Source: Rhodospirillales bacterium (GTDB lineage Bacteria > Pseudomonadota > Alphaproteobacteria > UBA8366 > Aestuariispiraceae). From it: a DNA stretch of 34,469 nt. Shown here piece by piece: positions 1,570-4,300 of the stretch (position 1 is the first letter of the stretch; each line of letters opens with the position of its first letter). The translations under genes were made by a program, and so were the position numbers. The notes beneath the pieces were generated by a model. The model saw only the letters and a program-made list of their open reading frames with translations. It was not told the DNA's origin and searched no databases. Where the stretch lies: positions 1-34,469 of the forward strand of contig NZSA01000090.1 of assembly GCA_002696645.1 (NCBI GenBank), written 5' to 3'.

Positions 1570-3123
1570 ATGGCCCCCCGCAATATCCTGATCGTCATGG
1601 CAGACCAGCTAACGCCCTTCATGGTGGGATGTTATGGCAATCCCGTGGTGAAGACACCCCATATGGATGCACTGGCGGCACAGGGGGTGCGGTTCGATGC
1701 GGCCTATAGCAACAGCCCGCTGTGCACACCTGGTCGCTATGCCTTTATGACGGGCCAGTATATTTCCCGCTTTGGGGGATGGGACAATGCGGCCTATTTG
1801 CCGTCGACCGTGCCGACCTTCGCCCATTATCTGCGCCTGATGGGGTATCGCACCGGGCTTGCGGGCAAGATGCACTTTGTGGGGGCAGATCAGCTTCACG
1901 GCTTTGAAGAGCGCCACACCACGGATGTGTATCCGGCGGATTTCGGCTGGGTGCCAGACTGGCGCTCACCAGAAAAGCGGATTGACCTGTGGTATCATAA
2001 TATGTCGTCAGTGGTGCAGGCAGGTCCGGCCTCCATTACCAATCAATTGGCCTATGATGATGAGGTCGGGGCGGCGACGCTGCGGGCGATTTATGATGCA
2101 GCCCGGACAGAAGACGAACGCCCCTTCTGCTATGTCGCCAGCTTTATTCATCCCCATGATCCCTATGCGGCGCGCCCCAGCTATTGGGATCTGTATGACG
2201 ATGCGGATATTCCCATGCCGCACGCGCCCCGCCCCAATGCTGCTGATAACGACCCCCACAGCCTGCGCCTGGAACATGCCATTGCACTGGATGCCGTTGA
2301 TATTGATGATGCTGATATCCGCCGCGCGCGCCGGGCCTATATGGCCAATGTATCCTATGTCGATGACTGGCTGGGCAAGCTGGGCGCCGCGCTGGTGGAA
2401 ACCGGTCAGGCGGACGATACCGCGATCCTGCTGGTTTCCGATCATGGAGATATGCTGGGCGAACGGGGCCTGTGGTACAAGATGACCTTCCGCGAATGGG
2501 CCTGCCGTATTCCCATGGTGCTGCATGTGCCAGGCCGCGCCGGGCAGGGTGTCAGCATCGCCAATCCGGTCAGTCAGGTGGACGTAACCCCAACCCTGCT
2601 GCAATTAGCCCATGAAGCCACCGGCGCGCCCATTCCGGACGCCATCGATCCATTGGATGGAACCAGCCTGCTGCAGTTTGTGGATGGCACGACACAGCGC
2701 GACACCACGGTGGCAGAATATACCGCGGAAGGCACCGGTCAGGCGATGCTGATGCTGCGGGATGGCTCCTGGAAATACATCTGCTGTCCCGGTGATCCCG
2801 ATCAATTGTTCGACCTGGCATCTGATCCAAATGAAGAAATCAATCTGGCCGATGCTGCCGAACAGGCCCCGCGCATGGCCGACTTTCGCGCCCGGGCACA
2901 GGCCCATTGGGACCCGGCGGATATCCATGCCCGTGTGCTGGACAGCCAGAACCGCCGCCGCGTCCTGTCAGCCGCATTGCGCATCGGTCAGCATACCGGT
3001 TGGGACTGGCAGCCCAAACGCGACGCGACACAGGAATATACCCGCAGTCATATGGACTTAACGTCTCACGACATCACCAGCCGCTCCCCTCGCCCGGTTC
3101 CGTTCAAACCGAAATGGAGCTAA
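1570..3123 (+). CDS. betC: Choline sulfatase
   Basis: This 517-residue cytoplasmic-type sulfatase hydrolyses choline-O-sulfate to choline and sulfate, feeding osmoprotectant synthesis or carbon and sulfur use. The active-site signature CxPxR is present as C52-T-P-G-R56, where the cysteine becomes formylglycine. Metal-binding Asp residues appear early (MADQ, residues 10-13) and in VSDHGDMLGERG near residue 290. The stretch GKMHFVGADQLHGFEER and the C-terminal end (WDWQPKRDATQEYTRSHMDL) are specific to BetC rather than to aryl sulfatases. AGGAG sits 7 bases before the ATG. No betA or betB lies beside it, and the BetI-like regulator in this window is 15 kb away, unlike the usual betICBA arrangement. 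Confidence 0.92.
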   Translation: MAPRNILIVMADQLTPFMVGCYGNPVVKTPHMDALAAQGVRFDAAYSNSPLCTPGRYAFMTGQYISRFGGWDNAAYLPSTVPTFAHYLRLMGYRTGLAGKMHFVGADQLHGFEERHTTDVYPADFGWVPDWRSPEKRIDLWYHNMSSVVQAGPASITNQLAYDDEVGAATLRAIYDAARTEDERPFCYVASFIHPHDPYAARPSYWDLYDDADIPMPHAPRPNAADNDPHSLRLEHAIALDAVDIDDADIRRARRAYMANVSYVDDWLGKLGAALVETGQADDTAILLVSDHGDMLGERGLWYKMTFREWACRIPMVLHVPGRAGQGVSIANPVSQVDVTPTLLQLAHEATGAPIPDAIDPLDGTSLLQFVDGTTQRDTTVAEYTAEGTGQAMLMLRDGSWKYICCPGDPDQLFDLASDPNEEINLADAAEQAPRMADFRARAQAHWDPADIHARVLDSQNRRRVLSAALRIGQHTGWDWQPKRDATQEYTRSHMDLTSHDITSRSPRPVPFKPKWS

Positions 3124-3166
3124 AGATCGACAAGACTGAATACAGGAAACTCTTTAACAGGAAGCA

Positions 3167-3205
3167 TCGATATGTTAATAATTTCTGAATTATTTAACAT
3201 ATCGA
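3167..3205. promoter_or_regulatory. Perfect inverted repeat upstream of the Fic gene
   Basis: TCGATATGTTAA (3167-3178) and TTAACATATCGA (3194-3205) form a perfect 12-bp inverted repeat with a 15-base AT-rich centre, ending 6 bases before the Fic start codon. The start itself repeats the half-site core (ATGTTAA at 3212-3218). The position suits an operator that blocks transcription or translation of the downstream gene. A natural candidate binder is the Fic protein's own winged-helix C-terminus; this is inference. Confidence 0.55.
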
Positions 3206-3211
3206 GCAAAC

Positions 3212-4300
3212 ATGTTAAAACAATCCTATGAAATACCCACACTTCCCCTGGATATTGATGTCGAGTCGAAAGCTGTTCTGAAAGCGCTTTCGACGGCACA
3301 TCGATATCTTGCTGAAGTCAAAGGGCGCGCCGCCTCAATCCCTAACCAGGGCATTCTGATCGACACGCTGACCTTGCAAGAAGCAAAGGCCAGTTCGGAA
3401 GTTGAAAATATAGTCACGACTCAGGATGACCTGTTTAAGGCCGACCCTATTATGGGCTCCCCCGATTCACCTGCCGCAAAGGAAGTCGCGCGATATCGTG
3501 AGGCGTTGAAAGTAGGCTTTCAGGAAATTGCCGCATCGCACGGCAATATAACCAACAATACCTTAATCGCGATGTTTCGTATCTTGAAATCCAGAGAGGA
3601 CGGATTTCGCAGAGTACCTGGCACCGCTTTGAAAGAGGGGGTCACGGGGAGGGTCGTGTATGTTCCACCTCAAGAGTTCGATGTCGTTCAGCGATGCATG
3701 GCGAATCTTGAGCAATATGTGAACGATCCACCGGTTTCGGAACTGGACCCGATCATCAGGATGGCGATTATCCATCATCAGTTTGAGAGCATACATCCTT
3801 TCCCGGATGGAAATGGCCGGATCGGCCGCATCCTGAATGTGCTGTACTTAACAAAAATGGGATTGCTGGACACACCGATCCTCTACTTAAGCCGCCACAT
3901 CACCAAAACCAAGATGGAATACTATACCCGCTTGCAGGCAGTCCGGGATGCTGGCGACTGGGAAGGATGGATCCTGTACATCCTGACGGCTGTTGCAGAA
4001 ACGTCAAAGACCACTCTTGTGCTCATGACGGGCATTCGGGATTTGATGGCGGAATACAAAAACACACTGCGCCAAAAATTGCCCAAGATTTACAGCCAAG
4101 ACTTGCTGAACAATTTATTTCGACACCCCTATACACGCATCGAATATATACAAAACGATCTTGGCGTATCGCGCCAAACCGCGGCAAAATATTTGGATAT
4201 GCTGGCCGATGCCGAATTTGTGACAAAAGTGACTCAGGGGCGCAGCAATTATTATGTAAACACCAGACTTATCAACTTGTTCATTCAGGCCGCTGCGTAA
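3212..4300 (+). CDS. Fic family protein with C-terminal winged helix
   Basis: Fic enzymes usually transfer AMP from ATP to hydroxyl side chains of target proteins. The catalytic motif HPFPDGNGRIGR is intact at about residues 195-206. An inhibitory helix motif of the form SxxxEN is visible as S61-S-E-V-E-N66, before the Fic core, which marks class II (self-inhibited) Fic proteins. The last 70 residues (RIEYIQNDLGVSRQTAAKYLDML) look like a winged helix-turn-helix, typical of long Fic proteins of about 360 residues. There is no separate antitoxin gene. The gene is visibly AT-richer than its neighbours and stands alone between betC and the convergent cobQ, suggesting acquisition. No strong Shine-Dalgarno is seen, so the ATG choice rests on the family-like N-terminus. 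Its target is unknown. Confidence 0.9.
   Translation: MLKQSYEIPTLPLDIDVESKAVLKALSTAHRYLAEVKGRAASIPNQGILIDTLTLQEAKASSEVENIVTTQDDLFKADPIMGSPDSPAAKEVARYREALKVGFQEIAASHGNITNNTLIAMFRILKSREDGFRRVPGTALKEGVTGRVVYVPPQEFDVVQRCMANLEQYVNDPPVSELDPIIRMAIIHHQFESIHPFPDGNGRIGRILNVLYLTKMGLLDTPILYLSRHITKTKMEYYTRLQAVRDAGDWEGWILYILTAVAETSKTTLVLMTGIRDLMAEYKNTLRQKLPKIYSQDLLNNLFRHPYTRIEYIQNDLGVSRQTAAKYLDMLADAEFVTKVTQGRSNYYVNTRLINLFIQAAA

What the first reader, a model, noticed from the sequence alone, without database searches (positions are those of the whole stretch)
3124..4300. Solitary class II Fic gene with a perfect 12-bp inverted repeat before its start
TCGATATGTTAA / TTAACATATCGA sits 6 bases before the ATG, in an AT-rich patch, and the start codon region repeats the half-site core. 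The Fic protein ends in a winged helix, so it may bind this operator and couple its AMP-transfer state to its own expression.
Basis: partly seen in the sequence, partly recalled or inferred. Interest (0 to 1): 0.55.

Follow-up and report, generated by a model that had tools for sequence, protein, structure and literature searches.

The report
Operator array before SoFic-like Fic gene
The palindrome in front of this bacterial toxin-like defence gene is part of a row of evenly spaced landing sites, shared by many of its relatives, that the protein itself probably binds to keep its own gene turned down.

Summary
The palindrome is real, but it is the centre of something larger. Four alternating half-sites (TTAACA/TGTTAA, starting at 3154, 3173, 3194, 3213; steps of 19, 21, 19 bp) precede the gene. 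The first coincides with a predicted -35 box; the last overlaps the start codon.

The gene is a SoFic-type class II Fic (Pfam Fic_N, Fic, SoFic-like_C; PADLOC SoFic) with a C-terminal winged helix.

In a set of 93 loci (window included) the architecture recurs: convergent half-sites mostly 21-22 bp apart, everted 19-20, direct 40-41. The half-site word follows two recognition-helix residues: R-Q gives TGTTAA, R-[ILM] TGTATA, R-P TGTAAAG, K-R-Q TGTCGA. A rule fixed beforehand named the commonest word in 7 of 9 held-out loci. It also predicted TGTCGA before an E. coli Sofic gene: seven exact copies within 300 bp, though exact 21-bp convergent pairs were absent.

Best reading: the Fic dimer binds the array through its winged helix and represses its own promoter, as shown by experiment for CccR. 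Coupling to AMP transfer is untested. Autoregulation by a Fic protein is known; the family-wide phased array and apparent helix-to-operator code were not found in the papers searched.

The parts
3212..4300 (+). SoFic-type class II Fic gene, 362 aa
   Evidence: Pfam Fic_N, Fic, SoFic-like_C above their cut-offs; PADLOC SoFic E 3.6e-117; NCBIfam SoFic equivalog 373 bits, below its cut-off of 550
3154..3159 (-). half-site 1 (TTAACA); coincides with the predicted -35 hexamer
   Evidence: sequence; promoter scan 10 of 12 matches; conserved in L007
3173..3178 (+). half-site 2 (TGTTAA), left half of the central 27-bp dyad
3194..3199 (-). half-site 3 (TTAACA), right half of the central 27-bp dyad
3213..3218 (+). 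half-site 4 (TGTTAA), overlaps the start codon and fixes codon 2 as TTA
   Evidence: codon-2 comparison
3173..3199 (.). central dyad TGTTAA-N15-TTAACA, the probable site of one Fic dimer
   Evidence: TG/CA dyads 27 bp wide with at least 7 of 9 outer pairs: 37 of 92 loci upstream, 2 of 92 inside the gene
3154..3182 (+). predicted promoter TTAACA-N17-AATAAT, overlapping half-sites 1 and 2 (inference)
   Evidence: 10 of 12; 4 such sites found in the 1,361-bp region against 1.8 expected, so weak by itself
3392..3409 (+). inhibitory-helix motif SSEVEN (residues 61-66)
   Evidence: S61, S62 and E65 invariant in 47 sequences
3794..3820 (+). Fic motif HPFPDGNGR (residues 195-203)
   Evidence: H195, P196, F197, D199, G200, N201, G202, R203 invariant in 47 sequences
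4097..4258 (+). C-terminal winged helix (residues 296-349)
   Evidence: AlphaFold2 model; matches SoFic 3EQX over 354 residues, Z 45.5, rmsd 1.9
4172..4210 (+). recognition helix (residues 321-333), with Q322 and A325 as proposed specificity residues

Best explanation
The gene encodes an AMP-transferring toxin of the SoFic anti-phage type, held back by its own N-terminal inhibitory helix. Inferred mechanism: the protein dimerises through its N-terminal helix, and the two C-terminal winged helices of a dimer contact the two half-sites of a 27-bp dyad (TGTTAA-N15-TTAACA; centres 21 bp, about 71 A, apart). Further half-sites at helical phase bring in more dimers side by side, here covering the predicted -35 and -10 boxes and the start codon, so that the protein shuts off its own promoter. 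Shown by comparison here: conserved architecture, and half-site words that change with recognition-helix residues 322 and 325. Inferred, not shown: physical binding, repression rather than activation, dimers side by side, and any relief of repression during phage infection.
For: Geometry: distances between exact own-class half-site words in classes A, B, C and P pile up at 21-22 bp for convergent pairs (48 of 76 within 60 bp), 19-20 for everted pairs (43 of 68) and 40-41 for direct pairs (43 of 73), with further peaks at 11, 30 and 51, near multiples of a helical turn. Direct repeats at 40-42 bp: 121 against 39.5 in shuffles, z 13.8, for 92 loci. TG/CA dyads 26-28 bp wide with at least 7 of 8 outer pairs: 40 of 93 loci upstream, 3 of 93 inside the gene. 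Two or more copies of one half-site word, unambiguous: 52 of 93 loci. Specificity: 183 own-class against 22 other-class words in 76 loci; 0 of 10,000 label permutations reach this (largest 109). In protein pairs of 45-66% identity, columns 322 and 325 rank second and third of 305 for predicting a shared half-site. R-P with TGTAAAG occurs in a sphingomonad clade inside class A and in a Hymenobacter protein whose nearest relatives in the set are class B. Rule fixed: the predicted word was strictly the commonest in 7 of 9 held-out loci. Prediction fixed: seven exact TGTCGA words in the 300 bp before an E. coli Sofic gene, none of the other four words tested; 2 TGTCGA in 1,062 bp of gene body. Codon 2 is TTA in 17 of 19 class A genes with Leu2, against 47 of 1,110 later Leu codons; the two exceptions (L057, L059) are the two in which the array is shifted upstream of the start codon. 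In the window's own genome the exact operator core occurs only before the Fic copies. Precedent: CccR represses itself through inverted repeats, and its dimer's DNA-binding helices are 70.2 A apart (PMC9755527).
Against: No binding or expression experiment. The half-site words and classes were chosen after seeing the data; the permutation test ignores kinship, and at whole-set level half-site and phylogeny are confounded (0 of 528 pairs under 45% identity share a word; all 59 pairs at 70-90% do). The top-ranked column, 204, is in the Fic motif region, not the winged helix. Among held-out loci L238 had no predicted word, L234 had one copy only, tied with others, and L232 (R-K, predicted to lack an array) had two TGTTAA words; direct repeats at 40-42 bp were not significant in the 14 held-out loci (z 1.2). 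Two of six R-P proteins (L063, L070) show no TGTAAAG. The exact 21-bp convergent TGTCGA/TCGACA pair predicted for E. coli was not found; the right halves read TAAACA or other variants. Gene-body controls were not wholly flat (direct 40-42 z 2.8; direct 45 bp z 4.3). CccR's published site has a 26-bp spacer, different from the 15 here.
Confidence: 0.82

Rival explanations
1. Another regulator (a host transcription factor) binds the array and controls the Fic gene; the Fic winged helix does something else, for example controls AMP transfer.
For: EcSofic's C-terminal domain is needed for toxicity (PMC12249575), so the domain has a role that does not need DNA. No binding was measured here.
Against: The word changes with two residues of the Fic recognition helix, including two lineages with R-P and TGTAAAG. 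The same architecture occurs on plasmids and chromosomes of Alpha- and Gammaproteobacteria and a Hymenobacter. In the window's genome the exact core is found only before the Fic copies.
Confidence: 0.1
2. The inverted repeat acts as an RNA hairpin in the leader that controls translation or attenuation.
For: The window stretch 3150-3225 folds far better as RNA than shuffles (-22 kcal/mol, z -6.8), and the hairpin would lie just before the start codon.
Against: Three relatives with the array fold only slightly better than shuffles (z -1.65, -1.65, -2.13). All half-sites of an array share one word and helical spacing, which a stem does not need. Part of the array coincides with the predicted promoter, upstream of any transcript. 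No Rfam match.
Confidence: 0.05
3. The Fic protein binds the array but mainly to activate, or to place itself on DNA, rather than to repress.
For: CbFic2 of Coxiella, also with an N-terminal inhibitory motif and a C-terminal winged HTH, is stimulated by DNA binding and bound random DNA (PMC10628234 passages).
Against: Half-sites overlap the predicted -35 and -10 boxes and the start codon, a repressor-like position; CccR is a repressor.
Confidence: 0.08
4. A chance palindrome in an AT-rich gap.
For: The gap is short and AT-rich.
Against: (chance 0.04) and the conservation in relatives.
Confidence: 0.01

Closest known systems
CccR of Yersinia pseudotuberculosis (PMC9755527; passages and section 10 part 1 of 2 seen)
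   Same: Fic domain plus C-terminal HTH, dimer, binds inverted repeats in its own promoter and represses itself (lacZ fusion, gel shift, footprint, mutated palindrome).
   Different: Published site is AGATAATCAT-N26-ATGATAATCT, one pair with a 26-bp spacer; here four half-sites with 13- and 15-bp spacers. CccR is a type VI secreted effector; no secretion context was looked for here. The paper gives CccR only 29% identity with 45% coverage to SO_4266, the SoFic structure.
Sofic / SoFic anti-phage Fic proteins (EcSofic, PMC12249575, parts 1-2 of 4 and a term search; SoFic 3EQX/3ZCN, PMC3667792 passages)
   Same: Domain make-up, fold (Z 45.5 to 3EQX), class II inhibitory motif, Fic motif; 44% identity to the E. 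coli protein, which matches PDB 9vjc over all 358 residues.
   Different: No DNA binding or promoter is discussed in the EcSofic paper (no occurrence of 'DNA-binding', 'winged', 'HTH', 'upstream' or 'transcription'). EcSofic has a small downstream antitoxin gene, AS1; here only 35 bp separate the Fic stop from the end of the opposite-strand cobyric acid synthase-like gene. Half-site here TGTTAA, there TGTCGA.
CbFic2 of Coxiella burnetii (PMC10628234 passages)
   Same: N-terminal inhibitory motif, Fic domain and C-terminal winged HTH that binds DNA.
   Different: Tested on random DNA, which stimulated its activity; no operator known. That paper states that DNA binding by SoFic had not been shown by 2023.
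Autoregulated toxin-antitoxin operons such as phd-doc (recalled; also named as the analogy in PMC2686095, passages)
   Same: A toxin module that represses its own promoter through repeated operator half-sites.
   Different: There the antitoxin carries the DNA-binding domain; here toxin, inhibitor helix and proposed DNA-binding domain are one protein.

Membership tests
SoFic-type class II Fic proteins | Fic_N, Fic and SoFic-like C-terminal domains | tested here: met
   All three above Pfam cut-offs; PADLOC SoFic E 3.6e-117
SoFic-type class II Fic proteins | NCBIfam equivalog ProtAdlyltaseSoFic (NF046030) cut-off | tested here: not met
   373 bits against a cut-off of 550: a relative of SoFic, not its NCBI equivalog
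SoFic-type class II Fic proteins | Catalytic motif HPFx[D/E]GN[G/K]R and N-terminal (S/T)xxxE(G/N) | tested here: met
   HPFPDGNGR 195-203 and SSEVEN 61-66
SoFic-type class II Fic proteins | SoFic fold with C-terminal winged helix | tested here: met
   AlphaFold2 pLDDT 90.5; 3EQX Z 45.5, rmsd 1.9, 354 residues
SoFic-type class II Fic proteins | AMP transfer, toxicity and phage protection | not testable with these tools
   needs the bench
CccR-like self-repressing Fic proteins | C-terminal HTH and inverted repeats in its own promoter region | tested here: met
CccR-like self-repressing Fic proteins | 26-bp spacer between 10-bp inverted repeats | tested here: not met
   spacer 15 bp between 6-bp cores, and more than one pair
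CccR-like self-repressing Fic proteins | Specific binding and repression shown | not testable with these tools
   comparative evidence only

The most novel reading that the evidence does not exclude
The array is not only an operator but the toxin's brake: Fic dimers lined up on their own promoter DNA are held in an inactive geometry, so the operator DNA acts as a nucleic-acid antitoxin. Loss, degradation or competition for that DNA during phage takeover would at once free the enzyme and raise its expression. Two observations leave room for this: apo EcSofic and ATP-bound SoFic differ in the position of the C-terminal domain, and Sofic is said to protect against phage T5. CbFic2, stimulated by DNA, speaks against it.
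Probability: 0.1. Interest if true: 0.85.

Novelty: new variant of a known kind. Interest (0 to 1): 0.62.

Why it matters
Class II Fic proteins of the SoFic type are listed as single-gene anti-phage systems whose control is called unknown in the EcSofic paper. A shared, phased operator with an apparent residue-to-base code turns the suspicion of 2009 that Fic-linked HTH domains may regulate fic expression (PMC2686095 passages) into a precise, testable claim about many proteins, including EcSofic, which has been crystallised. It also gives a ready readout (reporter release) for finding the trigger during infection.

Tried and rejected
Rejected: chance palindrome; a conserved RNA hairpin (strong in the window, weak in the three relatives folded); an Rfam element (none at 3000-3400). 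A second gene copy in the genome is doubtful: contig C83 matches C73 at 99.95% over all 4,086 bp compared, flanks included, in a bin with 6.26% contamination, so it may be a duplicated or strain-variant contig.

Led nowhere: close relatives in viral contigs with the single protein (none); genome searches around G070, G517 and G533, which returned only loci already fetched; PDB entries 9TB0, 9TC4, 9TCH and 9TCL (SoFic), absent from the rows, whose library ends on 8 April 2026. I do not know whether any of them contains DNA.

Mistakes mended: one search printed the wrong side for loci in reverse orientation (L002, L004, L041-L049); redone. The de novo array finder chose wrong words at some loci (for example L090). 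The upstream-ORF test counts chance reading frames (it flags the window itself), so its Fisher p of 0.011 is not used. Loci dropped before counting: 12 of 146 with too little upstream sequence, short proteins or late match starts, then 22 of 134 at 90% redundancy; L061, redundant with L093, was added back because of its R-P helix (93 loci).

Claims that this is not in print rest on paper searches of an open-access library without bioRxiv and most subscription journals; the SoFic structure paper of 2009 was not seen.

Full report
WHAT IS THERE. The repeat reported is exact and far beyond chance in this window. Reading around it shows four copies of one 6-base word in alternating orientation: TTAACA 3154, TGTTAA 3173, TTAACA 3194, TGTTAA 3213 (steps 19, 21, 19). 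The first coincides with the -35 box of the only promoter-like match on the + strand in this gap (TTAACA-N17-AATAAT, 10 of 12; 4 matches in the 1,361-bp region against 1.8 expected), and the last overlaps the ATG. Upstream is a choline-sulfatase-like gene ending at 3123; downstream, 35 bp away, the end of an opposite-strand cobyric acid synthase-like gene. No partner gene lies between.

THE PROTEIN. 362 residues with Pfam Fic_N, Fic and SoFic-like_C, PADLOC SoFic, the Fic motif and the class II inhibitory motif. It is a relative rather than an NCBI equivalog of SoFic (373 against a cut-off of 550 bits). The AlphaFold2 model (pLDDT 90.5) superposes on SoFic 3EQX (Z 45.5, rmsd 1.9, 354 residues, 40% identity). 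Helix 321-333 is the recognition helix of the winged domain.

RELATIVES. I collected loci from whole genomes, named plasmid and phage records and genome contigs. Of 146 loci with a match, 134 were usable and 112 non-redundant at 90% protein identity: 92 SoFic-like and 20 other class II Fic. One redundant R-P locus (L061) was added for the specificity tables, making 93.

GEOMETRY. In a first set of 48 SoFic-like loci, 29 had a direct 7-base repeat at 41 bp against 7.0 in shuffles (z 10.7), and 36 an inverted repeat at 20 bp against 12.8 (z 8.0); gene-body controls reached z 4.3 at one other distance (direct, 45 bp). In 92 loci, direct repeats at 40-42 bp gave 121 against 39.5 (z 13.8; gene body 54 against 36.7, z 2.8) and inverted repeats at 16-25 bp gave 517 against 245 (z 15.0; gene body z -0.1). 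Exact half-site words lie at discrete distances: convergent 21 or 22 bp (48 of 76 pairs within 60 bp), everted 19 or 20 (43 of 68), direct 40 or 41 (43 of 73), with lesser peaks at 11, 30 and 51. These are near multiples of one helical turn, so the half-sites face one side of the DNA. Dyads TG...CA 26-28 bp wide with at least 7 of 8 outer pairs occur upstream in 40 of 93 loci and inside the gene in 3 of 93; at 6 of 8 it is 64 and 20. A 21-bp step is about 71 A, close to the 70.2 A reported between DNA-binding helices of the CccR dimer; that match is my inference.

SPECIFICITY. Grouping the 93 loci by recognition-helix residues gives distinct words. R-Q: TGTTAA, mean 2.00 per locus, 14 of 24 with two or more. 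R-[ILM]: TGTATA, 2.10, 18 of 29. R-P: TGTAAAG, 1.17, 3 of 6. K/Q-R-Q type: TGTCGA, 3.94, 15 of 17. R-[LMVA] with S/A325, or R-A: a TCAAA-containing word, 2.43, 6 of 7. R-[NK]: none of the five words twice, 0 of 7. Three loci fell outside. The words and classes were set after seeing the arrays. For four classes (76 loci), 183 own-class and 22 other-class words; no label permutation of 10,000 reached this, though permutation ignores kinship. To limit kinship I compared only protein pairs of 45-66% identity (687 pairs, 250 sharing a word): columns 322 and 325 ranked second and third of 305; the first was 204, in the Fic motif region; the wing column 341 was tenth. R-P occurs in a sphingomonad clade close to class A (support 1.0) and in a Hymenobacter protein whose nearest relatives in the set are class B; both use TGTAAAG. 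Two other R-P proteins (L063, L070) show none.

PREDICTIONS FIXED BEFOREHAND. The rule was written. New loci gave 14 non-redundant SoFic-like genes. Nine carried helices for which the rule names a word: the predicted word was strictly the commonest in 7 and present at least twice in 6 (R-P 3 of 3, class C 3 of 3, R-Q 1 of 3 as commonest). L238 had none and L234 only one copy, tied. L232 (R-K, predicted none) had two TGTTAA words, both on one strand as I read them. L231, L326, L328 and L314 were outside the rule. Direct repeats at 40-42 bp were not significant in these 14 (z 1.2), inverted ones were (z 7.9). At I predicted TGTCGA before the E. coli Sofic gene. The gene in strain DA33133 matches PDB 9vjc over all 358 residues and has seven exact TGTCGA words in the 300 bp upstream, none of the four other words tested, and steps of 30, 40, 71, 40 and 30 bp between the forward copies. 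Exact convergent partners were missing. 278 of 5,426 E. coli genomes hold a similar gene.

START CODON. In class A the last half-site runs into the gene. Codon 2 is leucine in 19 of 24 genes and TTA in 17 of those, whereas TTA is 47 of 1,110 leucine codons later on. The two exceptions, L057 and L059 (Asticcacaulis), are the two whose array sits further upstream, clear of the ATG. This is what an operator overlapping the coding sequence would leave.

LOCI WITHOUT AN ARRAY. Five loci whose start is abutted or overlapped by a long upstream frame (L046, L110, L111, L122, L130) lack a 7-of-8 dyad; four of the frames are N6 DNA methylases and one a type I specificity subunit. A gene embedded in a restriction-modification operon has no promoter of its own to guard; this fits but is a small set.

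OWN GENOME. The operator core with up to two mismatches occurs at 6 places; the only exact ones are before the two Fic copies, and the reversed-pattern control gives 5. So the predicted target is the gene itself.

KNOWN AND NEW. CccR self-repression is established. A 2009 paper suggested that Fic-linked HTH domains may regulate fic. A 2023 paper states that SoFic DNA binding had not been shown. The EcSofic paper does not use the words DNA-binding, winged, HTH, upstream or transcription. In searches I found no report of phased arrays or of a helix-to-operator code for Fic proteins; the library has no preprints, and four SoFic PDB entries of unknown content exist.

VERDICT. Observation confirmed and widened; self-binding and self-repression likely (0.82); coupling to AMP transfer open.

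Noticed in passing
L350:901-1200: Seven exact TGTCGA half-sites in the 300 bp before an E. coli Sofic gene whose product matches PDB 9vjc over its full length.
   Followed up: yes
G000 contig C83:8552-12637 (L002): A second copy of the Fic gene with its flanks, 99.95% identical over 4,086 bp; probably a duplicated or strain-variant contig rather than a true second gene.
   Followed up: partly
L110, L111, L122, L130, L046: SoFic-type genes directly downstream of type I restriction-modification genes (four N6 methylases, one specificity subunit) lack the dyad; three of the five have N or K at position 322.
   Followed up: partly
L018, L010, L028, L025 upstream of the Fic start: Other class II Fic genes (28-30% identity) show alternating half-sites with a similar 20-bp step but related to CCATATT/AATATGG, so the architecture may be wider than SoFic.
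   Followed up: partly
L314 and L326 upstream of the Fic start: Helices without R321 have other repeated words: TGTCAAA-like in L314, and a repeated AAAGGT-containing inverted element in L326.
   Followed up: no
window 3150-3225: The same repeat would form an unusually stable RNA hairpin over the leader (z -6.8), much less so in the three relatives folded.
   Followed up: partly
window residue 204 (Fic motif region): This column ranks first of 305 for association with half-site class, ahead of the recognition helix; probably a clade marker, but unexplained.
   Followed up: no
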